A stretch of 64,000 nt of DNA from Scenedesmus sp. ARA3 (Eukaryota; Chlorophyta; Chlorophyceae; Sphaeropleales; Scenedesmaceae): assembly GCA_004335835.1 (NCBI GenBank), contig RWJK01001313.1, forward strand, positions 312,603 to 376,602, written 5' to 3'. Below the pieces are notes generated by a model. The model saw only the letters and a program-made list of their open reading frames with translations. It was not told the origin of the DNA and searched no databases. Made by a program: the position numbers and the translations under genes. Shown piece after piece: positions 1,305 through 54,600 of the stretch. The stretch's first letter is position 1. Every line of letters starts with the position of its first letter.

Positions 1305-4300
1305 ATGACGACCATGGATCGCTTCACGCCTAGCAGGGCACCAGTGAAGCGCGTGAAGGCCATCCAGCTGGGCGTGTGGGACCCCGAGGAGATTGTGAGT
1401 CCCCAGCAGTACCTGCTAACGCAGCAGCAGCAGCAGCTGTAGCCAGCAGCAACTGCCAAGCCACGCCATGCATGCCCCTTACTTGCACACGTATGCCTCA
1501 ACCCGCAGAAAAAGTACTCGGTGTGCCATGTGGAGGCAGCAGAGCTGTATGAGAAGGGCAAGGCAAAGGCAGGCGGCCTGTCCGACCCTCACATGGGCAC
1601 CATGGACAAATTTGGAGGCATCTGCTTAACAGATGGCGCAGGCATGCACGACTGCCCCGGATACTTTGGGCACATAGAGCTGGGAGAGCCGGTGTACCAC
1701 TGTGAGCGCCTGCTGGCACAGGCTGGAGCTTTTGCAGCAGCACATGAGCAGCAGCAGCAGCAGCAGTTGAAGCCGCATGGAAAGGTTGTGCAGCAGCACT
1801 CAAGCAGCAGCAGTATCCCTGCAGCGCTTCAAGCCAGCTGCAGCAACAGATCAAAGCATGCGAGCCATTCGCAGTCAGCGGTTGGGCTGCAGCAGCTGCT
1901 GGAGCGGAGATAGCTGTGCAGTGCACACCAGCTTGTGTTGCACAGCATGCTCTGTTGGACTCGCAGCAGCTGCAGCAGTAGTGGCTATTCCGTATTGTGC
2001 TCATAGCATCCAAGCATGTTGCACAACATAGTTAGAACTCACAGGCTCGGCAGCAGTGTGCCGCATGCAGGAACAGGACTCACACTTGCAGCAGGCGCCA
2101 TGCGCAGCGTTGTGCACATGTGCAAGCCTACACAAAAGCACACCAAACACATGCCATGTGCAGCATGCTATGCATGCCTAGCACGGCCACTCGGTAGCTC
2201 TGCAAGTGCTGCGCTGTCATCCTGCAAGCTGCGTCTGTTGATCATCCCGCAATGCTGTTGTCGTGCTAGACTTTGCTGTGCTGTGCTACATGTTGTCTGT
2301 CATGCTGTGTTGTAATGCTTAGCATGCTGTGCCGTGCTGTTGTCGTGCTTTGCTGCCCTACCTGTTGGGCTACATGCTGTTTGTCACGCTGTGCTTTGTG
2401 CTGTGTGCTGCGTGCCGTGCTGCTGCAGGCGGCTTCATCAAGACGGTCATCCGCGTGCTGCGCTGCGTGGGGCACACCAACTCCAAGATCCTGCTGGACA
2501 AGGTGAGGCGGCGCAGTGCTGCTGCTGCAGTGCTGTTGATTGCGCTTGACACACTTGGTTGTTGGTGCCGTCCAACAGCCATGTACGCTACCCACGCCTG
2601 CAGCTGCCGGGCTGTCAGGACGGCGTGCACAGTGCCGAACGTTTCGCTTTTTGGCTGGCAATGCTATGTCGTGTTAACACGCTGCTGCTGCTGCTGCTGC
2701 TGCTGCAGGCTGACCCCAAGTACCGGGCGGGCCTGATGCTGCGCAAGCCGCAGGCGCGGCTGCGCCACTTTGTGGGGGCGTGCGCTTCCAAGCGCTTCGA
2801 TGACGCAGGAGGTAGGCGCACTGGTCGGGAGTGGCAGCGGGAGTGGCAGCAGGGGTTCGAGCCGTGAGGCAGGCCCGTTTGCATCTTGTTTCTGCTGTTC
2901 ACAGAGAGTTTGCATCTAAGCATGCAGACATCCTGAGCACTCCTGCTGTGTTGCGGCATGCGCCTCCGAGCGCTTTGGCTATGCAGGAGGTGTGAGGGAT
3001 GGGGTGGGTGGGGTTGGATAGCAGGGGTTGGAGGTGCGAGAAGGCTGGCTTGCAAGCTGTTGATTCCACTCTGTCGGCACGCGCTTGGCTGCAGGCTCGT
3101 CTGTTTCAATGCGCTCGTCTGCTCAGCTGCATCAGTGTGCAGTGCAACATGGAGTGAGCAACTTTGCTGTGTCTGGTTGGGTCATTTTGCAGGCAACCCG
3201 CAGCCGGCGTACAAGCTGGCGGGCTTGAAGATCATCATGTGCTGTCAACACATCAGGCTCATACAGTCCGTTTTTTTGTCACCCGCAGGCAACCCGCAGC
3301 CGGCGTACAAGCTGGAGGGCATGAAGATCATCATGGAGTTCCCCAAGCCCAAGAACCCCGACGAGGCGGGAGCCATGCCAGAGGTGGAGCGCAAGCAGGT
3401 GCGCTGCTGCTGCTGCGTGCCTGAGGCTTATAACCAACTTTCAAACTCGATGACGGTGTGCGTATCTGTGTGCCAGTGTTGCCGCATGCAGCGTCGCTAT
3501 CTCTGTGCTGCTGGTCCTTGCTGACTCCACACTGCTCGCCGTCTTCTCTGCCCTCTGTTGCCCGTTGTGCGTCTTCCTCGGGTTGCCTTGTTCTCGGCGC
3601 TTCGCCTTGCAGGAGCTGACCGCGCGTGCCGCACACCGCATCCTGTCTGCCATCAGCGACGAGGACTGCCGCGCGCTGGGCTTCAACCCGGCCTACAGCA
3701 GACCCGACTGGTTCCTGCTGAGTGTGCTGCCCGTGCCGCCGCCGCCGGTGCGGCCGAGCGTGATGATGGACAGCAGCGCGCGGTGAGTGGCGGCGCTATC
3801 AGCTTGATTGGCAGCCTGCATCGCCCGCGGCAGTGTAAAGTTTTACAGTCACGACTACTGACGCGGCTGTGCTGCGTCATGCACACATCTCTTGTGCGCA
3901 ACCTGAGATTCATGAGGTTTTGCCGCTTCAGCTGCTGCTGCGCGCCTGACAAGTGGCCTCACGACCTCGGACACAAGCTGTCGGTGCATGGTTGGCCACG
4001 AACAACTGTGATGTTTGCTTGCTTTTTTTGCTTGCGCTGCGTGCAGCTGCGAGGACGACCTCACGCACAAGCTTTGGATGCATAATGTGCTGTCACACGT
4101 CGTCAAATTGACTGCATTCTCTTGCGCTGCGCTGCATTTTCATGCTGCGTGCAGCTGCGAGGACGACCTCACGCACAAGCTGGTGGAGATTGTGCGCGCC
4201 AACAACACGCTGAAGCGCATGGTGGCCAACGGCTCGCCGCAGCACATCATCAACGAGTATGTCGCGCTGCTGCAGTTCCACGTGACCACCTACATGGACA

Positions 4301-7300
4301 ACACGCTGCCCGGCATGAACCCAGCCACGCAGAAGAGCGGCAGGCCCATCAAGTCCATCAGCCAGGTGCGAGGATACCTCGGCACAGCGCATGTGGTGGC
4401 GTGCTCGTCGAACAAGTGTGTATGCATGCATCGCTGCGCCCGCGAGTGCGCTTGCTTTGACTTCGTTATCCTTGCGAGGTGCGGCTGGAAGGCTGGTTGA
4501 ATTGCCGCCTTTGCCGGGTGAGCATGCACGCGGGAGTGATGCGCCGCCCCTGCAGCTGCTGCCAGCCACATCATATCTGCCACGCTGCGCTGACTGCACA
4601 TTTTCTGCCCGCCTGCGCCCTGGCTACTGCCTCCCCGCCTGTGCAATGCGGCTGCTTGTCTGAATACCACTTTGCAGCGCCTCAAGGGCAGGTCGGGCAG
4701 CATCCGCGGCAACTTGATGGGCGCTGCTGCTGCTCTGAATCACATGGCTTCAACTCCTTGCGCTGAGTGCATCTTGTCCGCCTGTGTGACAATTGTTTGC
4801 CGCGCAGCGCCTCAAGGGCAAGTCGGGCCGCATCCGCGGCAACCTCATGGGCAAGCGCGTGGACTTTTCTGCGCGCACAGTCATCACGGGCGACCCAAAC
4901 ATTGGCATTGATGAGCTGGGCGTGCCCTGGTCCATTGCACAGAACCTGACCTTCCCGGAGACGGTCACGGCCAACAACAAGGGCTAGTGAGTGCTGTTTG
5001 GGTGGCAGCGTGTGCCTGGGTGCTGCGTAGGAGTGACTGCCTTGACTACTGGCAAGCAAGCAGGAGTAGTGTGCTGCCTGGATTGCGTGGGGCGGTTTCA
5101 ACGAATCAGCAAGGGTGCTATTGAGCAGCCAGCAAGCCTGTGTCAGATCATGCAGCATTTGCAGACGTGTTTCTGTTATGCACGTGCGCGCCTCACACTG
5201 CATGTTTCGCATTCTGAACAGATCCTGCTGCCACTGCATTGCTGCTGCTGCCGTTGCTGCCGCAGCCTGCAGGCGCTGGTGGAGGTGGGCCCTCATGCGC
5301 CCGCGGGGCAGACTGGCGCTAAGTTCATCATCCGCAAGGACGGCCGCCGCATCAACCTGGCCTACCTGCGCGACGGCGCCAGCAAGCAGCTGGAGGTGCG
5401 GCGCGCGCACTATATTCGTACACATCTTGTACTGAATGCACACAGGCGTGTTGATCATCTCTGAGCTTCTCTGGTGTCTGCACGTCTGCTTGCTTGAACC
5501 TTTCTGCTGTGTTACGCCACATATACAATCAGTTTGCTGCTGTCGCGCGCCGCTGTGCCTTGTAGATCGGCGACAAGGTGGAGCGGCAGCTGCAGAACGG
5601 CGACCTGGTGCTGTTCAACCGGCAGCCCAGCTTGCACAAGATGAGCATGATGGGACACCGCATCCGCATCCTGCCCTACTCCACCTTCAGGCGAGGCTGC
5701 TGGTCATTCGATGGTGTGCTGCCTTAGGGCTAGTGCATGCGGTGTGCACTGAAGGGTGTTGCCAGGGGACCACGGGGTGCGGAGCGCAGTAATCACGGTG
5801 TGCTGTTGAGCATGGCGTGGTTGTGTGCGGAGTCTGTCTGCGCTCTGCAGAGAGCAGCGTGAAGCCTTGTGCAGCTGTGCTATGTCTTGTGCCACCCATG
5901 CACACGATGTCTCGCCATGCATACTTCTGTCTGGCACAACCTTACAATTCACCTGTATGTTGCTGCAACTCCTGCATGCAGGCTGAACCTGAGCGTGACC
6001 ACGCCGTACAACGCCGACTTTGACGGCGACGAGATGAACATGCACGTCGCGCAGAGCCACGAGACGCGCGCGGAGATGCGCCAGATCATGATGGTGCCGC
6101 GCAACATCGTGTCGCCGCAGGCCAACAAGCCCGTCATCGGCATCGTGCAGGTGAGTGGGGTTATGCGGGTGTGGTGCTGCGATCTGCAGCATCGTGCGAT
6201 GCTTGGCAGCGGCGTGCAGTGAGAACATGGGCAATGGGCCAGGCATTGCTGACGCTAGAAGACGCCATGAGTCGTGGGCAACTGAAAGCGCACAGCTTCG
6301 GTTATGTCTTGCTTGGCAAGGTGGTCATATTGCGGTGGTCATATTGCGGTGGTCATATTGCGGTGGTCATATTGCGTTGAGTTTGTGTTGCATTCATTTG
6401 AAAAGTGTCCGCTGCTGCTGCTGTTGCTGCTGCCTCCTTGCGTGCCGCGCAGGACACGCTGCTGGGCGCGAAGCTCATCACGCAGCGCGACACCTTCATC
6501 GGCAAGCAGCTCATGATGAACATCCTCATGAACATCATGGACTGGGACGGCACAGTGCCCATGCCCACCATACTCAAGCCGGAGCCGCTGTGGACCGGCA
6601 AGCAGGTGGGTCTCTTGAACCGAAGTCCACTGGTTTGTTTGGAGGTGGCGTCTGTGGGGGCCTGTGACAGACAATTGCGACAGTGCATCCTCTATGTCTA
6701 CCAAACCTCACTCCGAGCCGCTGTGGACTGGCAAGCAGGTGGGCGGCGCAAGGGAAAAGGGGGCATGTGTGTGCATGTACAGGCATGAGTTTGGTTGTAA
6801 CATACAAGCTCGGTGCGCGGCATGTGGTGCTTTGCCTGCACACACAGAGTATGTACATCTGCGCATTGCACCGTGCACGTTGCGCCAATATCGGTACAAA
6901 CAGTGGCGGCGTGTTGGTTAGCTGCACACTGCTGCGCCCTGCTGGCCCGCCTGCCTGGCTGTCTCTGTTATCAATCTCAGGCGTTCAGCTGCTTCCTGCC
7001 CAACGCTGAGTCTCGACGCAGCTACGGCTGGGCGGACTGCTGCGCCTGTCGCTGAGCTTGCCTGCCTGCGTGCCTGCCTGCCTGCCTGCGTGTTGCACCT
7101 GTCGCAGGTGTTCAGCTGCTTCCTGCCCAACGTGAGCCTGACTCGCACCAGCAGCTGGGCCAAGGACAACGACGACAGGGACTTCTCTTTCGACGACTCC
7201 TCCATCCTCATAAAGCGCGGCACGCTCATCCACGGTAAGCCAAACCCTGCAGCATGTTATGTTTATGTTGCGTTGTGTTTGTGTTGGGGTCTCACAACTT

Positions 7301-7644
7301 TGATGTTTCCTCTATCCTCATCAAACCCGGCACGATCAACCGGTATGAATGTGCTGGATTTTACATGCAGCGCTGGGTTTATGTAACTGGGTTCCTCGTG
7401 CTGTGCAGCGTGTGCTGATTGCGTTCAGCACACCGTTGCTTGCGTATAGTAACTGCCGTGGCTGCAAACCTCACCTGTCGCTGCTGCTGCTGCTGCCGCC
7501 GCGCTGCAGGCTGCCTGTGCAAGAAGACGCTGGGCACGGGCGCAGCGGGGCTGGTGCACATCGTGTGGAACGAGCTGGGGCCAGATGCCACGCGCTACAC
7601 CATCAACAACACGCAGTTCACGGTCAACCACTGGCTGCTGCAGG

Positions 7645-7677
<33 letters not shown>

Positions 7678-10600
7678 CGCTGTCATGTGCAGCTGCCTGA
7701 TGCTTGCAAAGTTGCACACGCATGCATGCGAGGAGACATGCGGTGACGCTGGCATGAGTCAGCAACGTTCGCTTGGTGGTGCAACGCTGGCTGTTGGGTC
7801 CTGCAAATGTGCTTGGTGCACTCTTGCAGCCTTCCAGTACGGGGCATGTGATTTGTAGACACACATCTCGTGCGTGTTGTACTGCCGCTTCAATCTGGCA
7901 GCACGGCATGTCCATCGGCATCGGAGACACGGTGGCTGACGTGGCGACTGGCGCGAAGATCGGCAGCTTGATTGACACAGCCAAGGAGGATGTCAAGCGC
8001 ATCATCGAGCAGTACCAGGTGCGGGGCTGTCGTTTGCTTTAAGAACATCTGGCGTACGCATTTGCACATGTGTGCCTGGCAGCGCAAACCTGCGTGCGGC
8101 CGAACTAGATATGCCTGGCAACTCAGGCAGTACAACCGTGTTGAGTGCTGCGGCGGCAGCTGCCTTCTGTGCAGCATGGTGGTTGTCGCACAGTAGTCAC
8201 TGTGCCATGTGGTTTTCCGCATGGCTCCTGCACGTGTGGGTTGTAAGTCAAACTATCTTCCGATCAGTATTTGGTTGTGCTTGGTTGCAGACGGGCAAGC
8301 TGGAGGGCATGCCTGGCCGCACGCTGATGGAGGCGTTTGAGCAGAAAGTGAACGCAGTGCTCAACAAGGCGCGCGATGACGCAGGTGGGCGGCGGCGGCG
8401 GTGGCGGCGGCGCAGGCAGCCAGGCAGGGCCATGCAGGGTGTTGTGAGATTGGTGTTTTCTGTGTGTTGCAACAGGGAGTGGAGGGGTGGGTGAGGGCGA
8501 GGGCGAGGAGTGGTTTGCAGCTGGCCTTCCTTGCATGCATAGGAGCACCAGCTGCTATTGGTTTTGTGTGCCGAGCTCATGTACGGCTGTCTACACACGC
8601 AACAATTGGCAAAGGTGCTGCGTTTGCACAGCGTGGCGCTGACCTGCTTGCTTGCTGTTGCGGGGCAAGACGATGATGTGTGTGCTGTGTGGTGCTGCTG
8701 CGCCTGCAGGCAAGACTGCGCAGAACAGCCTGGACTGGTCCAACAACATCATCAAGATGGTCACCAGCGGCTCCAAGGGCTCCTTCATCAACATCTCACA
8801 GGTGCGGCCTTGCATCAGCCTGCAGGCATGCCTTTCTGCCGGCGTTGCTTTCTCGACTTTGCCACATTCAGCAGTCGCTGCACACCTCTGTTAGGGCATT
8901 TCTGTGGTGGTGCCTCCAGCGTGGCACGTTGCTGGAGACTCTCACACGCGCGTGCTCGCACGTCTGTTGTGGCGATGCTGCTGGGAACATGCATCACACC
9001 TGAGGATGCTGGTGCGCGTAAGTCACTGCTGCACAGCACAAGCTGCTTCCCAAACCAATTCCAAACGCCCGCTCGCACATACCATGCTGTGGGTCCTTCT
9101 CTACCCACTTTATTGCCCCCGCAGATGATGGCGTGCGTGGGCCAGCAGAACGTGGAGGGCAAGCGCATCCCCTTTGGCTTTGTGGGCCGCACGCTGCCGC
9201 ACTTTTCCAAGGACGACTACGGGCCTGAGAGCAGGGGCTTCGTGGAGAACAGCTACCTGCGCGGGCTGTCGCCGCAGGTGCGTGTATTAGAAACCCTGCT
9301 AGTGCATGTTGAGTGTGCTCTGCCCCATGTGGGCAGAGCACACTCAAGCCCCATGTGGGCGCCTCATGTGGGGTGCGGGGGGAACAGGTGCCTGGATTGT
9401 CTGCGCACGTGTGGAGCCGGGGGAGGGCTTGGCAGCTTGCTTGCTTGGTCGTTGAGTTGTCTGCTGTTGAGGCTTCGTGGACAGCAGCTAGCGGCGAACG
9501 TCCTCAGCCAGCTGTGTATGCTGCGCCTCATGTAAAGCGGTATATCAATATGTTTCACTGCTGTTGGTTTGCTGCGCATGGCTTGCAGGAGTTCTTCTTC
9601 CACGCCATGGGTGGCCGCGAGGGTCTGATCGACACCGCTGTGAAGACCTCGTCCACCGGCTACATCCAGCGCCGCCTGGTCAAGGCCATGGAGGACCTCA
9701 TCATCAAGTGAGGGACATTAGTATTCTGTTACATTGTTCGTTATAATGTTACAGAATGTGTTATATCAGACAGTATTGTACTGTATGTGTACCTCGTCTT
9801 TGCTGTTCACAGGCCATGCACATACATGGTGTGCTTGCTTGCTCTTCCTCTGTGGTGTGTGACATCGAGCGCATCAGCTGCAGGGTGTTGCTGTTTGGAT
9901 GGTGGGGTCGTGCATGAGTATGCTTCTGTGGTTTGTTGTTCTGCAGGTATGACGGCACGGTGCGCAACAGCGCGGGCGACGTGGTGCAGTTCCTGTACGG
10001 GGAGGACGGCATGGACGCAGTGCGCATTGAGGGCCAGGTGGGCGGCTAACGGCGGCTGGCTGGATACAGCTGGGGGTGCCCTTGCTCTTTCTATTGCATG
10101 GGCTGCTTGCTGAGGTTTCATAAGCGCTACGTGTGCCTGACGGCAGCAGCCGCCAGATGTGGTTGCTGCATGCGTGCGGAGCTGCGGGTGGCGCCGATCC
10201 TTTTTGTGTTTCACCACACGGTGGTGTGCCATGTCAGCTCAGCCTTCCTACAGACGGCTAGCAGGTTATACTTGCAGCATCTGGAAACCACTTCTGGCAC
10301 TGCTGCTGTATGCGGCTGTGTGTGTTGCTGCGCAGTCCATCGAGCACCTGAAGTGGGACCGCAGCAAGGTGGCCAAGACCTTCAGCTACGAGGGCCTCAC
10401 GCCAGCCGCAGCCAACTGGCTGGGGCAGCAGCAGCTGGAGGACGTGAACAGCAAGGTGGAGGTCCGGTGAGTGGCTTGGCTTGAAGTCGGGCCGGTTTGG
10501 CGATGCTGCTGCGGTTCGTGTGCATGTATCTGGCCAACGAGTTGCGCAGAACACGCCAATCTGCACATTTTTGTGTGTGATCAACAACACACACGCGTAT

Positions 10601-11220
10601 CCTCTTCGGGCCTAAACTACGGCCCTAAACCACAGTGGAAATAATAACAACACACACCACGTCGCATGTGTGCTGTGCACTCACCTGTTTTTGTTGTGAG
10701 CTGCTGGACGTCGAATACCGCAGCATCCTGGACGACCTGCGGTTCATACATCTTGTAACAACACAGCATAACATACCCCTGCTGTTACATAACGCGTTTG
10801 GACACGCTTGCAGCGAGCTGCTGGACGGCGAGTACCGCAGCATCCTGGACGACCTGCTCTTCATGCGCCAGGAGGTGCTCACGCACGGCAACGGCGGCGT
10901 GAACATCCCCGTGAACCTGAAGCGGCTGATCTGGAACGCGCAGAACACGTACAAGTGCGGGCCCAACCGGCCGCCGCTGCCGGGGGAGCTGGCGGCTGTG
11001 GACGTGGTGGGAAAGATCCAGGTGAGATGTCGCGCACGTATTGTGTGGGGTCATGGAAAAGCTTGGTCTGAACGGATGCTGCCAGGTGTGACACACAGAG
11101 GTCTAGGAAGTTTGGTTTCTCGCTGTCCTGGGATGGGTCTGCGTCTGCTGCTGATGCCGTGGGTGTGCCCCGTAGCGCTGCTGCGTGCTTCTGACTGCAG
11201 CTGCTCACGAGCTGTTATGC

Positions 11221-11268
<48 letters not shown>

Positions 11269-14200
11269 AGGAGCTTGCCCAGAAGTTGATCGTGGTGGTG
11301 GGCGAGGACGAGCTGAGCAAGGAGGCGCAGCGCAACGCCACCACCACCTTCATGACGCACCTGCGTGCCACGCTGGCCAGCAAGCGCGTGCTGGGAGAGT
11401 ACAAGTGAGCATGTTGCACTCATATGCATAAATCCTAACTTGCAACAACCCTGTATTGCTGAAAACAAGTTGACTTGCAGCAACTGTGCGTGCAAAACAG
11501 TTCGTGCTGTGAGAGTACAAGTGAGTCAGTTGCGGCGGTGGTTCTGCTGCCGCTGCTTTACAGGCAGTTGCTGGCTATGTTTTGGTTGAGCTTACTGCAC
11601 ATCAGAGTGAGAGAGAGCGCATCGCTGCACCTGCTGCAGTGCTTCATGGCACACACGCAGATACACAGCAGGCATTGGTTTATTCACCAACACGATGTGT
11701 ATGATTCTGTGCTGTGCCGCAGGCTGAGCCGTCAGGCCTTTGACTGGCTGGTGGGTGAGATTGAGGAGCGCTTCAATGCGGCAATGGCCAACCCTGGGGA
11801 GGCCATCGGCACTGTGGCTGCGCAGAGCATCGGCGAGCCCACCACGCAGGTGAGGGGCAGCAGGCTGGGCGCAGATGCAGCCGACATGAGCAGGTCCCAG
11901 TGAATGTGTGCTGCAAGTACTACTTACAGCGGTAGGCATTGACATGATCATAAATCTGGCGCAGAGCATTCGCCAGCTCATCATGCAGGTCAGGGGTGAG
12001 GCGCAGATGTGTAGCAGGTGCCTGCGATGATGTTCTTTGAGTGGTAGTAAGCCATCTTCTGCAGTGCTCCTGTCTGTGTTGTGTTGTATTCACTGCCGGC
12101 GTGTGATGTTGGAAGCTCTTTTGCTTGCTTCATCGTGTAACGCCTGCTCTGCATGTGCCCGCCTGCCTGGCCTCGCGCGCAGATGACGCTGAACACGTTC
12201 CACTTTGCGGGTGTGTCGGCGAAGAACGTGACGCTGGGCGTGCCGCGGCTGACGGAGATCATCAACCTGGCCAAGAACATCAAGACGCCCTCGCTCACGG
12301 TGCGCATGTTGGATGCATCATCGTAGCTGGTTTGTATGTTGTGCATGGGGGGGATGTTGCAGAAGGAGGCGCTAGCTGTAGCCTGGCAGCCTGCTTGCTG
12401 CTTGCCATGATGTGTGCGTCACCTGCTGAGTGCAGGGGCTGGACGGTGTTGTTTGTGTGTCACGGGTTGTGTGCAGAACATCAGCTGGCTGCGTTTGCTG
12501 CCGGTATGAAGCTTTTCTGCTGTTTGGTGTGCATATTGAGTTGCGGCTTGCAAGATTTCGTTTAGCGCATGTTCTTAGGCACAGCTCTTCAACAAGGCTG
12601 GGCGCCACACATCAATCCAGTTGTCATGCAACATGGCCTTGTTGCTGCACACTTGACTGCCGCAGGTGTGCCTGCTGGGCCAGGCCAGCCGCGACCGTGA
12701 TGCGGCCAAGGAGGTGCAGTGCCAGCTGGAGTACACCACCATGCGCCACATCATCGCGCGCAGTGAGATCTGGTGAGCCGCGCTGCATGCGTATTTTACC
12801 GTATCACAGTGTAGCTGCAGCTGTTGCATTATGTGTTCACCATGCGCCACGTCATCGCGCATAGCGCCAGCTGGTGTGACAAGCTGTGTGGCAGCAGGTC
12901 GATTGCGCATGTTGGCGTTGCCCTGACCTTCTCAGATACGCAATGCACTGCAGTTGTTGTCAGGCAGGTATGACCAGCTGCAGGTCGACTCAGAGGCCAC
13001 TAATGTGGCTGAGGACGTGTCGCTGCTTGAGGACTACCACGCATCTTGTGCCTGGCCTCTTTTTCTCGTAACACCTGCACCGTTGAATTGTATATGATTG
13101 CAGGTACGACCCGCCGCAGATGGATGCGGAGGCCACGAATGTAGCGGAGGATGTGTCGCTGCTGGAGGACTACTACGCTGTTGAGAACTACGACGCGAGT
13201 CGGCTGACGCCGTGGCTGCTGCGCCTGGTGCTGGATGAGCGGCTGACGGTGGACAAGCACATCACGATGGACATGATCCAGGCACGCATCCACGAGGAGT
13301 ACGAGGTGAGGGGGCTGGATGTGGCATGGCGTGCTGTTGGCCAATGGGTGCTGGTTCAACTGCAGGGATGGTGGATGTTTGAGGTATGGGGCACAGCCGT
13401 GGTGCCAAATCGACCATGCAGCCTGTAGGCTGCAGCCTATCGCCAGGCTTTGGGTCGTGCTGTTGCCTGTTGCCTGTTGTGATGCTGGGAGCGACAAGCA
13501 CATCACCATGGACATGATCCAGGCACGCATCCACGAGGACTACGAGGTCAGCGGGCATGTGTATTGAGGCATGTACGGTGTAGGGGCATGGCTGGGCTTG
13601 TGGTTGGGCAGTGGGGGTAAGCTGGGATGGTGGGCGTTTGAGGCATTGGGCACGGCAGTGGTGCCAACCTGACTTCGCTGAGCTACAGCCTATGTATGGT
13701 GTCTGGCTGTGGGGCTTGTTGTTGCGTGTTGCCTGTTGCCTGTTGCCTGTTGATGCTGGGAGTGCCAAGCACATCACCATGGACATGATCCAGGCGCGCA
13801 TTTACGAGGAGTACGAGGTAAGCGGGCCAGCTGCGTTGCTGCTAACAGGCCTTGAGCCTTGGTAGCCTGCCACACTTCTGGGGATGCTGATTTTGCTGAT
13901 GTGTTTGAATGTGCAAACCCCTGCCTGCTACCGCTGCTGCCGCCCCCGCCTAACACGTCAACCTACCCCTCCCTTGCATGTCCCCCTTACGTCTCTAATG
14001 GCCTGCTGGGCGAGATTGTGCCCGGACTTGAATCACTCACAGCACTGCTCAGTGCTGCTGCTGCTGCCGCATTGTCTCTTCTGCCGCAGGGCCTGCTGGA
14101 CGTGATTGTGTCAGACGACAACGCGCCCGTCAAGGTGGTGCGCCTGCGCATCGTGGACGACAGCGGCCAGGGCGGCGGCGGCGGCATGATGCAGGGCGGC

Positions 14201-17200
14201 GGGGAGGGCGACGAGATGGGCGCGATCAAGCCCATGGCAGGCGGCGGCGACGACAGCCAGGTGAGGGCCGTGCCTGTTTGTGTGCTTGTTGTGTGGGGAT
14301 CGCAGGCTGAGTGCAAGGGACGTGTGGCAGAAGCAGAGGGTGTTTAGGGGCAGCAGATGGGCGCGATCAAGCCCATGGCGGGCGGCGGCGACGACAGCCA
14401 GGTGAGGCGCTTATGTGTTGTGCAACATGTGTAAGCAGCAATGTGCCATTCAGCAGCAGATGGGCGCCATCAAGCCCATGGCGGGCGGCGGCGACGACAG
14501 CCAGGTGAGGGTCGTGCCCGTCTGAAACAGGCGATGCTGAGTGCAAGCAGGATGTCTTACAGCAGCAATATGCCCTGGAAGCTTACTTTCCGCTGCCGCC
14601 GCTGCTGCTGTGCCAGGCTGTGACTGACGAGACGCTGAAGAAGCTTGACGCTGGCTACCTGCGGGACATGAAGCTGCAGGGCGTGGAGCGCATCAACAAG
14701 GTGTTCCTGCGCCAGCAGAAGAGCCTGTTCCCTGATGCTGCTGCCGCCAATGGGTACCGGCAGGAGGAGGAGTGGGTTCTGGACACGGAGGGCGTCAACC
14801 TCATGGGGGTGAGCGGGCTTGCAGGAACCTGCAGGAACTTGCAGGAACCTGCAGGAACCTGCAGGAACCTGCAGGAACTTGCAGGAACTTGCAGGAGCTG
14901 GTGATTAAAGGAATGTTGTGGCTTGGGGTGCATGACCGCATGTGTGGCTTTGTCGACTGTGGGTTGAGTGCTGCGGGATAGAGTGGACGAGGCTTCCGCA
15001 GGGGCTGTTTGAACATGCGCAAAGTGTGTGCACACAGCCCGGTTGACGGCAGCACGCGTTACAACTGTGTCTCCGCTCCCTCTGACCTGCTGCTGATGTG
15101 CCTCGGGTGTACCCTACACTCTGCTGTGTTTTGCGCTGCGCAGGTGCTGCCGCAGCCAGGCGTGGACCCGAGCCGCACCATGAGCAACGACCTGATCGAG
15201 ATCATCCAGGACCTGGGCGTGGAGGCGTGCAGGCAGGCGCTGCTGCGCGAGCTGCGCAACGTTATTGAGTTCGACGGCAGCTACGTCAACTACAGGTGGG
15301 AGGCAGTGCGGCAGCAGCGTGCGGACTTGATGTGTGCAGCTGCGGGCAGTGGTTGGAAGGGGTGCATGCGTGCTGAGGTTGGCGCTGGGAACACACAGCG
15401 TCAGATGCAGCTGCTGCTTTTGTTGATTAATCGGGGAAGCGTCCGTGGATGTGGCGGGATCTTAAATCACAGTTGCTGGCTAGCTGAGAGTTGTGCTGCT
15501 TGCTGCTCTGCCCTGCCAAACTCGTCATGTGTCGACGTGTTGAACGTGCGCTGTCCCTATCGCAGGCACCTGGCCATCCTGTGTGACGTGATGACGTGCC
15601 GCGGGCACCTCATGGCCATCACGCGCCACGGCATCAACCGCACCGAGGCCTCGCCGCTGGCGCAGTGCAGCTTTGAGGAGACGGTGGACATCCTGCTGAG
15701 GGCGGCGCAGTTTGCGGAGAAGGACAAGCTCACGGTGAGGGACGGGGGTGCTGCTGTGTTTGTGCTGATGCTGTGGGTTGCTGCTCATGCGGCGTGCCGG
15801 GGGTAGCGCTGTTTGTGAGGAGACGGTGGACATCCTGCTGAGGGCGGCGCAGTTTGCGGGGAAGGACAAGCTCACGGTGAGGGACGAAACGTGTAGATGG
15901 TGCGGGCGCGTTCTAAGCGTGTGCTTTGACTGTGTGTGTGGACATCCTGCTGCGCGCGGCGCAGTTTGCGGAGAAGGACAAGCTCACGGTGAGCGCAGCG
16001 AGTGTTCTGTGGCGCTGCATGGGTGTGGGCTGCACCCGCAGGGCGTGGGGGATGTGCGTGTTGTGCCCATTTTCTGCTGTTGTTGTAACTGATGTTGCTG
16101 TCTGCAGGGCGTGAGCGGACCATCATGCTGGGCGTGTTGGGCATTAGGCCTTCGACCTGCTACTGCATTGTTGCACTGCAATTGTGCTGTGCTTACGGTG
16201 TGCTTGCTGTACTGTGCCATCTTACACACATGCAGGGCGTGAGCGAGAACATCATGCTGGGCCAGCTGTGCCCGCTGGGCACTGGTGCGTTCGACCTGCT
16301 GCTCAACGAGGAGGAGCTGGCTGCTGCTGTGGACCTGCTGGGCATGGAGGATGGCGAGGGGGGCATAGGCTACGGCGAGTACGGCTGGGGTGACGGCGGC
16401 ATGACGCCAGGCCGCACGCCCGGCCACATGACGCCCAGCAGGACGCCCTACATGACACCCAACAGGTGTGCGGGGTGTGCGCTGAGTGGTTCATCATCAT
16501 CACGTTACGCATCAAGCCATAGCATCAACACTGCACTGCGTGGTTTGTGGTTGACAGAGTGATTGCATGACTGCCGATGCAGTGCTCTTTAGGCAGATAG
16601 TCAGCATGCTGGAGTGTAGCACTGCTTCCTTTGTGGATGTATTGCTGCGCTGGTTGTGTGCTGATGTGGGGTGCTGCATCATTGGCTGTACTGCTTGCGT
16701 GCTGGTGGTGTGGGTGGCTGCTGTGTTGCTGTACTGCTTGTGTACTGCTTGTGATCTGATGTGTCGGGTGCTGCTGTACTGCTCATGTTCTGACATTGTG
16801 GGCTTCTGCTGCACTGGTGTTACTGCTGTTGTACCGCCTGCAGGGACCCTGAGCAGATTGCGATGTCTATGTCACCCATGTGGAGCCCTGTGCGTGACAT
16901 CGCATTCAGCCCCTCACGGGCCGCCATGTCACCAGGGCTCATGTCACCGGGTGCTGGGGCAGGCTATAGCCCCACCAGCCCCAGCTACAGCCCCACTAGC
17001 CCGGGCTACAGCCCAACCAGCCCCAACTACAGCCCGACTAGCCCCGGCTACAGCCCCACCTCGCCGGGCTACAGCCCGACCAGCCCGGGCTACAGCCCCA
17101 CTAGCCCGGGCTACAGCCCGACCAGTCCAGGCTACAGCCCGACCAGCCCTGGCTACAGCCCGACCAGCCCAGGCTACAGCCCCACGTCGCCGCAGTACTC

Positions 17201-17777
17201 GCCAACCAGCCCAACGTACAGCCCGACGTCGCCCAGCTACAGCCCAACCAGCCCGAGCTACAGCCCGACGTCGCCCAGCTACAGCCCGACGTCGCCGACG
17301 TACAGCCCGACGAGCCCCAGCTACAGCCCGACCAGCCCGAGCTACAGCCCAACGTCGCCGAGCTACAGCCCGACAAGCCCGAGCTACAGCCCCACGAGCC
17401 CGACGTACTCGCCGACCTCGCCAACGTACTCGCCAACGAGCCCAACGTACTCGCCAACGAGCCCCAAGTACAGCCCCACAAGCCCGACCTACAGCCCCAC
17501 ATCACCCACCTACAGCCCAACCAGCCCAACATACAGCCCCACCAGCCCAAGCTACAGCCCAACCAGCCCCAGCTACAGCCCCACGTCGCCGACGTACAGC
17601 CCGAGCGATGCTGGCGCGAGCCCGGCGGAGCCGCCGGCAGCTGGCGCGGCTGGCAGCAGTGCAGCAGCAGCAGCAGCAGGTGCTGGCGGTGGTGCTCCTG
17701 CAGGCGCAGGCGCTGGCGGGGCAGCAGGTGGCAGCTACAGCCCAGCTGATGATGGTGATGACATGCAGATCGGCTGA
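1305..17777 (+). CDS. RPB1: RNA polymerase II largest subunit, 33 exons, 1,835 aa
   Basis: This is the catalytic largest subunit of nuclear RNA polymerase II. Exons: 1305-1394, 1509-1701, 2429-2502, 2709-2811, 3289-3398, 3613-3782, 4155-4365, 4808-4986, 5266-5395, 5566-5690, 5982-6150, 6453-6605, 7108-7234, 7510-7643, 7902-8018, 8291-8384, 8710-8801, 9125-9277, 9589-9707, 9947-10037, 10336-10466, 10814-11021, 11271-11404, 11723-11849, 12183-12299, 12666-12772, 13104-13305, 14090-14260, 14617-14808, 15144-15295, 15566-15734, 16236-16465, 16844-17777. They sum to 5,508 nt and every phase matches. The metal-A loop NADFDGDE puts the catalytic Asp at 474, 476 and 478. The bridge-helix block [19 protein letters not shown] starts near residue 810 and the trigger-loop block [20 protein letters not shown] near 1080. 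The C-terminal domain has 30 YSPTSPx heptads (residues 1566-1775) and a Gly/Ala-rich tail. The length is normal for the family. Oddities are one GC-AG intron (donor at 5691), lost clamp zinc ligands, and introns full of copied exon ends. Confidence 0.98.
2956..2996 (+). repeat. Echo of RPB1 exon 4 3' end and donor
   Basis: This intron 4 segment is a diverged copy of 2778-2817. It keeps the GCTTCCAAGCGCTT-like core and the GCAGGAGGT donor context. Nothing shows that it is spliced. Confidence 0.75.
3189..3239 (+). repeat. Echo of RPB1 exon 5 acceptor and 5' end
   Basis: A near-identical copy of the acceptor and first 16 codons of exon 5 (3285-3335), about 96 bases upstream of the original. It reads [16 protein letters not shown] where the exon has [16 protein letters not shown]. 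No donor follows directly. Confidence 0.9.
4041..4080 (+). repeat. Echo of RPB1 exon 7 acceptor and 5' end
   Basis: Repeats GTGCAG plus the codons for CEDDLTHKL of exon 7 (4149-4182), about 108 bases upstream, then diverges. A more decayed third copy may lie near 3957-3990 (CTCACGACCTCGGACACAAG). Confidence 0.9.
4671..4721 (+). repeat. Echo of RPB1 exon 8 acceptor and 5' end
   Basis: Repeats the acceptor and 15 codons of exon 8 (4801-4853), reading [15 protein letters not shown] where the exon has [15 protein letters not shown]. It lies 131 bases upstream of the original. Confidence 0.9.
6320..6375 (+). repeat. 14-bp minisatellite in RPB1 intron 11
   Basis: Four exact copies of GGTGGTCATATTGC in tandem. 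They lie inside an intron and belong to no coding frame. Confidence 0.95.
6710..6743 (+). repeat. Echo of RPB1 exon 12 3' end and donor
   Basis: Repeats the end of exon 12 and its GTGGG donor (source about 6576-6610); both encode EPLWTGKQ. It lies downstream of the original, in intron 12. Confidence 0.9.
6975..7033 (+). repeat. Echo of RPB1 exon 13 acceptor and 5' end
   Basis: Repeats the acceptor and start of exon 13 (7102-7161). It encodes FSCFLPN and then diverges, keeping a GCAGCTACGGCTGGGC-like tail. It lies 127 bases upstream of the original. Confidence 0.88.
7309..7345 (+). repeat. Echo of RPB1 exon 13 3' end and donor
   Basis: A diverged copy of 7195-7238, the TCCATCCTCAT...GGCACG...CACGGTA segment at the end of exon 13, placed downstream in intron 13. 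The same exon is therefore echoed at both ends. Confidence 0.75.
9310..9346. repeat. Perfect 16-bp inverted repeat in RPB1 intron 18
   Basis: TGAGTGTGCTCTGCCC (9310-9325) faces its exact reverse complement at 9331-9346 across a 5-base loop. The CCCCATGTGGG centre recurs at 9349-9360 and in part nearby. Confidence 0.95.
9723..9757. repeat. Imperfect inverted repeat in RPB1 intron 19
   Basis: ATTCTGTTACATT (9723-9735) and AATGTTACAGAAT (9745-9757) pair with one mismatch around a 9-base loop, just after the exon 19 donor. The stretch is AT-rich compared with its surroundings. Confidence 0.8.
10695..10751 (+). repeat. Echo of RPB1 exon 22 5' end
   Basis: Repeats the start of exon 22 (10814-10866), reading [14 protein letters not shown] where the exon reads [14 protein letters not shown]. 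The echo's acceptor position has TTGTGAG instead of TTGCAGC. Confidence 0.9.
11223..11270 (+). repeat. (CTG)15 run ending in the exon 23 acceptor
   Basis: Fifteen CTG triplets lead directly into CAG at 11268-11270, the acceptor of exon 23. The triplet run itself therefore forms the 3' splice region. A similar run sits after the exon 14 donor at 7644-7673. Confidence 0.95.
11502..11524 (+). repeat. Echo of RPB1 exon 23 end and donor
   Basis: Short copy of GTGCTGGGAGAGTACAAGTG (source 11389-11408) with one change, keeping the donor GTGAG. It lies 113 bases downstream. Confidence 0.75.
11961..11999 (+). repeat. Echo of RPB1 exon 24 end and donor
   Basis: A diverged copy of the GCGCAGAGCATCGGCGAGCC...ACGCAGGTGAGG end of exon 24 (source 11819-11857), placed downstream in intron 24. 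Confidence 0.75.
12831..12876 (+). repeat. Echo of RPB1 exon 26 3' end and donor
   Basis: Repeats the segment encoding [12 protein letters not shown] and its TGGTG donor context (source 12730-12776), changed to [12 protein letters not shown], about 100 bases downstream. Confidence 0.85.
12963..13040 (+). repeat. Echo of RPB1 exon 27 acceptor and 5' end
   Basis: An intact-looking acceptor followed by 25 codons similar to exon 27 (source 13100-13176); both encode [15 protein letters not shown]. It lies about 137 bases upstream of the original. Confidence 0.9.
13490..13553 (+). repeat. Echo 1 of RPB1 exon 27 3' end and donor
   Basis: Repeats the codons [18 protein letters not shown] and a GTCAGC donor (source 13247-13311). 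From the internal AG at AAG|CAC to the donor it is phase 0, so it could be read as a cassette. Confidence 0.9.
13757..13822 (+). repeat. Echo 2 of RPB1 exon 27 3' end and donor
   Basis: A second downstream copy, reading [18 protein letters not shown] with a GTAAGC donor. With the exon itself it makes three tandem copies at roughly 245-265-base spacing. Confidence 0.9.
14351..14405 (+). repeat. Echo 1 of RPB1 exon 28 3' end, cassette-like
   Basis: Encodes [16 protein letters not shown] between an AG and a GTGAGG donor in phase 0, like the end of exon 28 (source 14215-14266). Both splice signals and the frame are kept, so inclusion would add 15 or 16 residues without a frameshift. Confidence 0.9.
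14457..14509 (+). repeat. Echo 2 of RPB1 exon 28 3' end, cassette-like
   Basis: A second copy of [15 protein letters not shown] between CAGCAG and GTGAGG, again phase 0, about 105 bases after the first. Confidence 0.9.
14817..14898 (+). repeat. 10-bp minisatellite in RPB1 intron 29
   Basis: About eight tandem units of GCAGGAACCT or GCAGGAACTT start just after the exon 29 donor. Every unit carries CAG|G, which resembles an acceptor. Confidence 0.95.
15812..15884 (+). repeat. Echo 1 of RPB1 exon 31 3' end, cassette-like
   Basis: Repeats [20 protein letters not shown] with a GTGAGG donor (source 15675-15740). An AG precedes GAG ACG, giving a 19-20-codon phase-0 segment. Confidence 0.92.
15939..15993 (+). 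repeat. Echo 2 of RPB1 exon 31 3' end
   Basis: Repeats [17 protein letters not shown] with a GTGAGC donor. Its 5' part is shorter than in echo 1 and no good acceptor sits at its left edge. Confidence 0.9.
16103..16164 (+). repeat. Echo of RPB1 exon 32 acceptor and 5' end
   Basis: A diverged copy of the acceptor and start of exon 32 (source 16231-16305): GCAGGGCGTGAGCG, then CATCATGCTGGGC, then TTCGACCTGCTNCT. Small deletions break the frame. Confidence 0.85.
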
Positions 17778-51679: not shown

Positions 51680-54600
51680 CTAAACATGCAGCTGCAGTCC
51701 CAGGCCCTTTGCCATTGCTGTCAAGGACAGCACAGCAGCGCTTGCTGTTGCAGATCGTTCCCGTGCAGCCTGCAGCGCAGCAGCTGCTGCAGCATACTGC
51801 TCCCGCGCCCACCCAACCTTAGCCAGTGCCGTCATGTGCGCAGCAGTCAGCTTTCCTGCAGCCGTTTGCGCCTCCTGCAGCTGCTGTGCAGCAGCATCTG
51901 CCGCCTGCTGGGCAACCGCCCACAGCCGGCCCGCTTCATGTGCAATTGACTGCTGGCGCGCCAGCTGCTCCTGTGCTGCTGCTGCCGCACGCTTTGCTGC
52001 CTCTACCAAAGCCGCCTGCGCCTCCGATGCGTCTAATACTGCGCTGCCTGTGCTGTCTGTGCTGCCAGCATCAGCTGATGCTGGTGAGTCAGCTGCAGCC
52101 GCCGCTGCTGTTGCATTGGCCAGCAGCAGCTGCGCACTGCTGATCTGCACTTGCAGTACCGCTACTTGTGCGTCAACAGCAGCCAACTCTGCCTGCCTTT
52201 CAGCGAGCCTTGCTTTGGCCTGCTGCAGAGCTGCTTGCTGTGCCTTGACATGGCTCAGTGAGCTCTTGAACTGCAGCTGTGCAGCAGCCAAATCCTCAAC
52301 CGCCTTACGCACTGCTGCACTTTCTGCTGCAGGCTCCGATTCTTGTGCCAAGACCTGGAGCAAATCATTGGCTGCAGCTGTCGCTGATTTGCTGTTGGAC
52401 TGCACCTTCTCTTCAGCCTCTTTCACTGCTGTCTGTGCTGCTGCCTCTGCCTCGCTGGTAGCCTGCTTTGCTGTTGTGCTGTACACAAGCCGCTCCTTAG
52501 CTGCTGCCGCTGCTGCTGCATAGCTCAAGCTGGCTTTCACGTCCTGCAGCTGCTGCGTCTTGTGCTTGAGAGCTGTCTTGGCAGCGCTGACGTTGGCGGC
52601 GGCTGCTGCATACGTGGCCTGTGCTGCTGCTGCCAGCGTAGCGTTGCTGGCAGATTCAATCATCTGCTGCTTGGCAGCAGCTGCTGCAGCCAGCAGGCCC
52701 TGCACTGTTGAGTTTGCTGCTGCTTCACTGTGCAGCGCTTCCTGCACCTGACTCTCAAGTGTGAACACCTGTGCTTTTAGAGACTCAACTGCTGTTGCTG
52801 CATTGCGCAGCTCATTCACCTTCTGCTGCTTCGCCTGCAGCAGCTGTATGCTGCTGTTCACGTGACCCTCAGCACTGCGCTGCGCCTCTTGTGCTGCGTC
52901 AAGTGCTGCCTGCTTCTCTTTGAATGCTGCATGCACTTGGCTGCTGCCTTCGTCTGCACTGATCAGCTCCAGCTGCGCAGCCTCATACGCCTTGAATGCC
53001 ACATTTGCGGCCAGCTCAGCTGCAATGAGCGAGTCCTTCTGCAGTGTCAGCTTCGCTGCAGATTCCAGCAGGTCGGCCGCATTGAACAGAGACTCCTTTG
53101 CTGCTGCTGCCGCAGTTCTGTGTGCTGCATCTGCGCTGCTGTTGAGCTTATCTGCCATGCTGGCCAGCTTTTCATCACCTGTGGAGGTTCCTGCTGCATC
53201 GCTTGATACAGCTGTGTTGGCAGCACTGCTGTCAGGGGAAGTAGAGATGACCATAGATGGCGCAGTACCATTGCTGCTGCTGGATTTGCTGCTGCTTGCG
53301 TCTTCGGAGGTGCTGGCAGCAGCAGCAGCAGCAGTGCTGCTGTTGTTGCCAGCTGCGCGTGCGTTTGCTGCTGCTGTAGCTGCCGACAGCTGCAGCTGTG
53401 CTGTCAGCTGTGCTAGCCGCTGCACCTCTGCATCAGCAGCAGCGTAGCGCTGCTGCGCTGCCTTTGCCTCTGCTGTTGTGTTGTATACAGCCTGCTGCAG
53501 CTTCGCAATGCTTGCCTGCATCTCATCAACATCCTCCTGGGCCTCTGCAACCCTTTGCAGAAGCTCATCCTCCTTTGCATCTGCTGCCTCTGCTGCTTTG
53601 CTGGTCTCCGCTGCCTTCTTCTCTGCTGCTGCTACACTGCCCTGAGATGCATTCACTGCATTGGAGGCAGAAGTAACGCCAATCTGTGCCTCAGCTGTAG
53701 CCGCCTTTGCTGTGTCAAGCTCGGCTGCCAGCAGCTGCAGCTTGGATGCTGCAGCAGATATCTGGCTTGTCAGCTGGTCTGCTTGCGCTTGCAGCTGCTG
53801 GGTGACATTGGGATCCTGCAATAGCACAGAGCGGCAGTTGCAGCGATAGCAGCAGGTGAGCTCAACCGTTACATGGAGAGTGACACTATCATGGATGCAC
53901 GCTACAATGCCTCCTTGGCCATGTTCCTGCAGCAATTTGCAGATGTGGAATATGCTGATGTACCGTATGACAGGTACATTGGCTGAAGACAGGCGCGGCG
54001 TATGCCTTCAAAAGCAGCTGCTGTAGAAGTAAGATGACATGTGATGCCGCAAACCTCATATGAATGATGCAGCCTTGATTGCCAGCCTACCTTGGATGAT
54101 GACACGGCTGCAGAAGCTGACGCCAGCTGGCCCTCCAGCCTTGCTTTCAGCTCCTTGGCTGCAAAGTAGTCTGTCATTGCATTCGCCTCATTCGCCTTGG
54201 CATTCTGCAGCGATGCCATTGCAGCTGTCAGCACCTTTTGCGCATGCAGACTGGCAGCCACAGCTGCAGACACCTCTGCAGTGGCTTGCTGGTGTGCTGC
54301 ACGTGTTGCATTGACTGCTGCTGTCGCCTCATGGAGTGCTTCCTGCTCCCCTCGGAGCTCAGACACTGCAGCCTCCAGCGCCCCCTGCTGCTTTGCAAGG
54401 TTTGCAGCTGCGTCTGCGTAACTTGCATTTGCCTTCTGCAGCTGCTGCTGCAGGCTGGTGACGCTGGCCTTCGCAGCCGCAAGGTTTGCAGCCTCCAGCC
54501 TGAACTCTGACTCCGCTGCTGCCGCCTTTGCTGCTTCGTGTGCTGCTAGCACCTTTTGCTCTGCCAGCACTGCCGCTACATCCTGCTTCTGCCCCTGGAT

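What the first reader, a model, noticed from the sequence alone, without database searches (positions are those of the whole stretch)
2956..16164. Introns of RPB1 are full of copied exon ends ('exon echoes')
At least 19 intronic segments copy 16 exon ends of RPB1, most together with the adjoining splice junction. The rule is strict: copies of 5' ends lie in the intron upstream of the source exon, copies of 3' ends in the intron downstream, at roughly 100-500 bases. This is what repeated short tandem duplications across exon-intron borders would leave. Divergence ranges from near-identical (exons 5, 27, 28, 31) to strongly decayed (exons 4, 13, 32), so the process seems ongoing. It would lengthen introns, shift which copy is used as the exon, and seed new cassettes. 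I know of no description of this pattern at such density in a single housekeeping gene.
Basis: seen in the sequence. Interest (0 to 1): 0.88.

Follow-up and report, generated by a model that had tools for sequence, protein, structure and literature searches.

The report
Exon-end copies scattered in algal introns
In this green alga the introns of a core housekeeping gene, and of a second one tested, hold many near copies of the ends of the neighbouring exons, in a pattern that ordinary short duplications followed by neutral decay do not fully explain.

Summary
I rebuilt RPB1 (33 exons, 1835 aa, no internal stop; 98% identical to a Tetradesmus obliquus protein). At score >=22, after a complexity filter, intron-exon matches number 17 among 64 adjacent pairs and 0 among 992 non-adjacent pairs. 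All 17 have the stated polarity. With four weaker ones there are about 21 segments from 17 exon ends.

It is not peculiar to RPB1. A PRP22 helicase gene on the same contig is denser (21 matches, 32 adjacent pairs; 0 in 240 non-adjacent). Elsewhere the distribution is patchy. One echo also exists in another T. obliquus assembly, whose annotated protein reads it as exon.

Some units are plain tandem duplications across the border. Plain duplication plus neutral decay fails twice: 1 of 41 repeat pairs is an independent intron-only repeat (simulation: 40-43%), and near-identical copies stop at the splice site while the intron flank mostly does not match.

Best reading: local duplications straddling exon borders, tolerated because the spare copy becomes intron, then continued homogenisation of the exon-like part. 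Main rival: a process that copies exon ends themselves. Without cDNA, long reads or a sister genome the last step is inferred.

The parts
1305..17777 (+). RPB1 gene, 33 exons (coding part)
   Evidence: gene model; homologues
2946..2989 (+). echo of exon 4 3' end (2768-2811), 75%
3193..3239 (+). echo of exon 5 5' end (3289-3335), 96%
3961..4006 (+). possible older echo of exon 7 5' end, weak
   Evidence: score 16; not individually significant
4036..4090 (+). echo of exon 7 5' end; 4036-4073 is 100% identical to 4144-4181 (11 intron + 27 exon bases)
   Evidence: present in P0001
4678..4722 (+). echo of exon 8 5' end (4808-4852), 91%
6694..6738 (+). echo of exon 12 3' end (6561-6605), 83%
6983..7033 (+). 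echo of exon 13 5' end (7110-7160), 83%
7299..7341 (+). echo of exon 13 3' end (7189-7231), 77%
10698..10747 (+). echo of exon 22 5' end (10815-10864), 92%
11503..11533 (+). echo of exon 23 3' end with donor (11387-11417), 87%, weaker
   Evidence: score 16
11959..11988 (+). echo of exon 24 3' end (11820-11849), 80%, weaker
   Evidence: score 18
12838..12873 (+). echo of exon 26 3' end (12737-12772), 81%
12968..13042 (+). echo of exon 27 5' end (13104-13178), 81%
13495..13546 (+). first echo of exon 27 3' end (13254-13305), 96%
13766..13817 (+). second echo of exon 27 3' end, 92%
14000..14020 (+). short echo of exon 28 5' end (14090-14110), 90%, weaker
   Evidence: score 17
14355..14401 (+). 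first echo of exon 28 3' end (14214-14260), 98%
14458..14504 (+). second echo of exon 28 3' end, 96%
15826..15876 (+). first echo of exon 31 3' end (15684-15734), 98%
15938..15988 (+). second echo of exon 31 3' end, 96%
16108..16164 (+). echo of exon 32 5' end (16236-16303), 75%

Best explanation
Step 1 (shown for some, inferred for the rest): short local duplications arise in this genome, with copies mostly 60-170 or 220-280 bp apart. Those straddling one exon-intron border survive, because the extra exon end lands inside the intron while one intact exon end remains; this filter gives the strict polarity. Step 2 (inferred): splicing goes on using the outermost donor and acceptor and ignores the spare sites; a half exon with a single splice site would not be recognised if exons are defined as AG-exon-GT pairs. 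Step 3 (inferred from the divergence pattern): the exon part of the copy keeps being refreshed from the exon, by short-tract gene conversion or template switching, while the duplicated intron flank, without a conserved partner, drifts apart. What remains is an exon-end echo that stops at the splice site, with an unrelated-looking spacer.
For: Complete border-spanning units exist (PRP22 exon 8: 244 bp at 90%). Flank homology beyond the splice consensus in 16 of 38 echoes. In the 344 kb sample, spacers of pairs at >=93% identity are distantly homologous to a flank in 6 of 30 tests at p<=0.01 and 9 at p<=0.03, as expected of old duplications with a young-looking part. Pooled identity falls from 0.90 in the last ten exon bases and 0.91 at the GT/AG to 0.40 at intron bases 7-10, control 0.28. 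RPB1 codon-position mismatches 32/38/53 show no strong coding constraint on the echoes. GT or AG kept in exact place in 32 of 38.
Against: No conversion event is shown directly; no outgroup DNA was at hand. Homogenisation should also keep some intron-only duplications alike, yet only 1 of 41 pairs is of that kind. Most young pairs lack a recognisable duplicated flank. The block-shuffle null may be too lenient for TG-rich introns. PRP22 mismatches lean to codon position 3 (31/31/90), which leaves room for constraint.
Confidence: 0.45

Rival explanations
1. Exon-end copying: a process that senses splice junctions inserts copies of the terminal 30-90 bases of an exon, with a few bases of splice site, into the adjacent intron. 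The spacer was there before.
For: Matches are anchored at the junction in 34 of 40 and drop within about 6 intron bases. 1 independent intron-only pair of 41 against 40-43% in simulation. Copies cover at most 0.51 of the exon. 15 of 15 pairs at >=93% identity have a spacer between the copies.
Against: Flank homology in 16 of 38 echoes and complete units show that intron was often duplicated too. No known enzyme does this. Many repeats elsewhere touch no predicted exon (42 of 70).
Confidence: 0.22
2. One reading: tandem duplications across exon-intron borders, then neutral decay of the intronic copy.
For: Complete units with flank-to-exon divergence ratios near 1.5-1.7 (PRP22 exons 8 and 5). 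Overall 113 non-synonymous to 107 synonymous codon changes, near an unconstrained echo facing a constrained exon.
Against: Simulation: intron-only pairs 220 of 550 and 165 of 380 detected, against 1 of 41 observed; young pairs with match under 0.7 of the unit 0 of 50 and 2 of 25, against 6 of 6. The simulation used two indel rates and search settings not identical to the scan.
Confidence: 0.18
3. The echoes are kept by selection, as alternative exon ends, decoy splice sites or splicing regulators.
For: Changes assigned to echo lineages fall 10/11/27 on codon positions 1/2/3 (one poorly aligned copy included); splice dinucleotides mostly kept; two exon-28 echoes are 48-nt in-frame stretches between AG and GT (sequence); E7 echo read as exon in P0001.
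Against: 35 of 38 sites would break the frame or meet a stop. RPB1 echoes show no strong third-position bias. The dinucleotides are kept no better than the neighbouring exon bases (0.91 and 0.90).
Confidence: 0.08
4. Assembly artefact of repeats or haplotypes.
For: Fragmented assembly, 1567 contigs, with N runs.
Against: Copies diverge by up to 25% and obey splice polarity; the E7 echo with spacer is in a protein from another assembly.
Confidence: 0.02

Closest known systems
Tandem duplication across an intron-exon border in a potato RNA-dependent RNA polymerase gene (PMC4974935; abstract and section 5 read)
   Same: A direct duplication holds the 3' part of an intron and the 5' part of the next exon, with acceptor and polypyrimidine tract.
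   Different: One event, both copies near identical, and it made a new spliced intron; here many events per gene, both exon ends, and the spare copy appears to be unused.
Intron gain by tandem duplication of exon sequence with a proto-splice site (Drosophila, PMC2891723, passages; Rogers 1989 and Hellsten 2011 as cited in the papers read)
   Same: Local duplication of exon sequence at splice sites.
   Different: There the duplicated exon piece becomes a new intron; here existing introns gain exon-end copies and intron positions stay.
Short direct repeats at intron borders (PMC11782384, passages)
   Same: Direct repeats at exon-intron borders.
   Different: Those are 4-30 bp and pair the two ends of one intron; these are about 30-90 bp and pair an exon end with a place inside the adjacent intron.
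Small tandem duplications from fill-in of staggered breaks (Pol alpha-primase and CST, PMC8355091, passages; plant patch-repair duplications recalled, not read)
   Same: A mechanism able to make short direct duplications with no transposon.
   Different: Not tied to splice junctions; predicts duplications inside introns too.
Introners (PMC9860276, passages)
   Same: Intron DNA added across genes, in lineages that include green algae.
   Different: No repeat family here: two spacers searched in the genome match only themselves; in 344 kb, 28 spacers match themselves, neighbouring echo spacers and otherwise only stretches of 17-34 bp.

Membership tests
Tandem duplication across an exon-intron border | Second copy adjoins the first and includes intron and exon parts | tested here: inconclusive
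   Complete units in some cases; flank homology in 16 of 38; 15 of 15 pairs at >=93% identity have a spacer that is not a like-aged copy
Tandem duplication across an exon-intron border | Unit crosses the splice junction | tested here: met
   Junction at the echo edge within 1 nt in 34 of 40, with GT or AG in exact place in 32 of 38
Intron gain by tandem duplication | A new intron position is created | not tested
   Needs introns of relatives; the copies lie inside introns in my model
Introner | Member of a dispersed family of similar sequences | tested here: not met
   2 of 28 spacers searched genome-wide, self match only; 28 of 28 against 344 kb, no family
Gene conversion between exon and echo | High-identity tract inside otherwise diverged homologous copies | tested here: inconclusive
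   6 of 30 spacer-flank tests at p<=0.01, 9 at p<=0.03; no outgroup to date the tract
Alternative exon or cassette | Echo site is spliced in vivo | not testable with these tools
   No cDNA; 3 of 38 would be in frame and open

The most novel reading that the evidence does not exclude
In this algal lineage exon ends are copied as units, from the splice junction inwards, into the neighbouring intron by a process that senses splice junctions (perhaps through nascent pre-mRNA or exon-positioned nucleosomes), so that introns lengthen from their edges out of exon material.
Probability: 0.2. Interest if true: 0.87.

Novelty: new variant of a known kind. Interest (0 to 1): 0.62.

Why it matters
Single cases of duplication across an exon border are in print. 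Genes whose introns are lined with such copies would be a natural experiment on two open questions: how introns grow, and how the spliceosome picks the right one of two nearly identical splice sites about 100 bases apart. Essential genes still need correct mRNA, so the rule in use could be read directly from cDNA. The contrast between exon part and intron flank makes short-range gene conversion, or exon-end copying, testable in an easily grown alga. It also warns annotators: the T. obliquus RPB1 protein record carries 36 residues that are probably intron.

Tried and rejected
Chance: rejected (0 of 992 and 0 of 240 non-adjacent pairs at score >=22 after the complexity filter). CAG/TGC microsatellites and CTD repeats: set aside by the complexity filter and, in the repeat scans, by leaving out the CTD; unfiltered one search has four non-adjacent matches at 22, all to exon 33. 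Mobile spacer or introner: not supported. Inverted copies: none within 1500 bp in the window at the settings. Hypermutable intron flank: not favoured, since in two complete units the flank diverges only 1.5 and 1.7 times as fast as the exon part. Selection to kill decoy splice sites: not supported, GT or AG exactly kept in 32 of 38. My first idea that spacers are never homologous was wrong: one search found flank homology in 16 of 38. Some global alignments force unrelated spacers together, so I do not use their pooled flank figures.

Results that weaken generality: of 8 contig starts of 10 kb, 4 gave no repeat pair (L022, L023, L024, L029). Of 5 gene loci taken without a hint of echoes, 1 (L035) showed a repeat overlapping the profile-matched exon. 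Elsewhere in the 344 kb, 42 of 70 repeat pairs touch no predicted coding segment. The exon predictor was trained on the same two genes on which its sensitivity was measured.

Dropped before counting: matches below the complexity cut-off; repeats in the CTD; echoes whose junction-side end lies more than 6 nt from the junction (2 of 40) (dinucleotide count). The PRP22 model is partial: it starts at 2465 of my extract, and a small exon in the 4081-4963 gap is missing.
Full report
WHAT IS THERE. The window is 312603-376602 of one contig of an 87.3 Mb genome held as 1567 contigs. I assembled RPB1 from splice sites and protein continuity: 33 exons, 1305-17777, 1835 aa, no internal stop, one GC-AG intron. 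Its best listed database match is a Tetradesmus obliquus protein, 98% identical; the next two are Scenedesmus proteins at 88 and 87%. So this is T. obliquus or a very close relative.

Every intron was compared with every exon. In one search (plus strand, complexity filter) RPB1 has 17 matches at score 22 or more, all to an adjacent exon (64 such pairs), none among 992 non-adjacent pairs. Ten copy 3' exon ends and lie in the downstream intron; seven copy 5' ends and lie in the upstream intron. Over RPB1 and PRP22, 34 of 40 echoes at score >=21 begin or end within one base of the exon boundary, and no echo covers more than 0.51 of its exon. The AG or GT at the echo is in exact place in 32 of 38.

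NOT AN ARTEFACT, AT LEAST FOR ONE ECHO. The T. obliquus protein P0001, from another assembly (11.1 Mb contig), is 36 residues longer than my model. Starting exon 7 at the echo acceptor (4047) gives the same length, 1871, with four substitutions, none in echo or spacer. Echo and spacer therefore exist there too, and that annotation took them for exon.

NOT ONLY RPB1. In the 200 kb upstream the densest region I followed is a PRP22/DHX8 helicase gene on the other strand. Its partial model of 17 exons has 21 matches at score >=22 among 32 adjacent pairs and none among 240 non-adjacent. In the rest of the 344 kb, 20 of 70 repeat pairs have exactly one copy in predicted coding sequence, against 8.5% for random placement; 42 of 70 have none. 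Four of eight other contig starts gave no pair. Of five gene loci taken without a hint, one had a repeat overlapping the profile-matched exon; two chosen on a hint both did. So similar repeats are widespread but patchy.

SIZES. Nearest copies lie 60-169 bp apart in 69 of 97 repeat pairs, 170-219 bp in 6, 220-279 bp in 19 and further in 3: two humps, near 120 and 245. The spacer between exon and nearest echo is 49-185 nt; 14 of 28 fall between 59 and 74 and none is shorter than 49. I cannot explain either figure.

IS IT SIMPLE TANDEM DUPLICATION? Partly. Some units are complete. PRP22 exon 8 and its echoes match over 244 bp at 90%, distance 152, with mismatch 7.8% in the exon part and 12.9% in the flank; for PRP22 exon 5 and its first echo the figures are 9.7% and 14.3%. 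That is near what a neutral intronic copy facing a constrained exon should give. Sixteen of 38 echoes share significant intron flank with their source, about 2 expected.

WHERE SIMPLE DUPLICATION FAILS. First, the two genes hold 41 repeat pairs; 38 pair an exon end with an intron segment, 2 pair two echoes of one exon, and 1, of low complexity, is an independent intron-only pair. A simulation with the observed unit sizes, uniform placement and neutral decay gave intron-only shares of 220 of 550 and 165 of 380 detected cases at two indel rates. Second, young pairs should match over the whole unit: in simulation 0 of 50 and 2 of 25 junction-type pairs at >=93% identity covered less than 0.7 of the unit; in the two genes 6 of 6 did, and in the 344 kb sample none of 15 primary pairs at >=93% abutted. 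Third, pooled identity falls from 0.90 in the last ten exon bases and 0.91 at the GT/AG to 0.68 at intron bases 3-6 and 0.40 at 7-10, control 0.28 (ungapped, so indels add to the fall). The simulation's search settings were not identical to those of the scan.

SELECTION OR HOMOGENISATION? Mismatches between echo and exon fall 63/69/143 on codon positions 1/2/3 (799, 796 and 796 sites), with 113 non-synonymous and 107 synonymous codon changes, near what an unconstrained echo plus a constrained exon should give. RPB1 shows little lean to position 3 (32/38/53), PRP22 a clear one (31/31/90). In families with several echoes, changes assigned to echo lineages fall 10/11/27 (one poorly aligned copy included). 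That may mean constraint, copies made at different times, or transfer of the exon's synonymous changes into one echo. Thirty-five of 38 echo sites would break the frame or meet a stop if used, so coding use is unlikely in general. Spacers of near-identical pairs are sometimes distantly homologous to a flank (6 of 30 tests at p<=0.01, block-shuffle null), which points to old duplications whose exon part looks young. I therefore favour exon-anchored homogenisation (0.45) over direct copying of exon ends (0.22) and the unmodified model (0.18).

HOW SPLICING COPES (inference). In my model, which rests on protein continuity, the site in use is always the outermost one: last acceptor, first donor. 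Recognition of exons as AG-exon-GT pairs would pass over half exons with one site. Exon definition is recalled knowledge and was not tested here.

WHAT IS KNOWN. The closest published case I read is one tandem duplication across an intron-exon border in potato, which made a new intron (PMC4974935, abstract and section 5). Drosophila introns gained by exon duplication (PMC2891723, passages) and short direct repeats at intron borders (PMC11782384, passages) are related but different. Mean intron length given for T. obliquus is 462 bp, against 230-302 bp for three others of its order (PMC5966456, passages), which fits growth from the edges without proving it. Eight library searches listed no paper whose title or abstract start describes exon-end copies throughout introns; they cover open-licence papers only and I read few of the hits.

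VERDICT. Observation confirmed and widened; interpretation partly supported; mechanism open. I rate it a new variant of a known kind.

Noticed in passing
97 repeat pairs in 344 kb of the genome: Distances between nearest direct copies are two-humped, about 60-169 and 220-279 bp, also among pairs with no predicted coding sequence.
   Followed up: partly
window 4047-4154: The T. obliquus protein P0001 carries this echo plus spacer as 36 extra residues, probably an annotation error.
   Followed up: yes
L003-L004 (contig C953, about 124-140 kb), minus strand: PRP22/DHX8 helicase gene with a higher echo density than RPB1.
   Followed up: yes
window 2681-2706, 7634-7675, 11218-11268: Long TGC/GCT arrays at splice sites: two run up to the acceptors of exons 4 and 23, one starts at the end of exon 14.
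   Followed up: no
window 5691-5981: Intron 10 of RPB1 has a GC donor.
   Followed up: no
window 6320-6376 and 14820-14896: Perfect 14-bp (4.1 copies) and near-perfect 10-bp (7.7 copies) tandem arrays inside introns.
   Followed up: no
window 14354-14401 and 14457-14504: Both exon-28 echoes are 48-nt in-frame stretches between an AG and a GT, so possible cassettes in a glycine-rich region; P0001 does not contain them.
   Followed up: partly
L031 834-1209; L036 698-785 and 860-947: Repeats overlapping profile-matched exons in a kinase and an AAA gene (78% over 230 bp, distance 147; 95% over 88 bp, distance 162).
   Followed up: partly
window 51680-55584, minus strand: Long alanine-rich open frames (751 and 560 aa), coiled-coil-like by eye, of unknown nature.
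   Followed up: no
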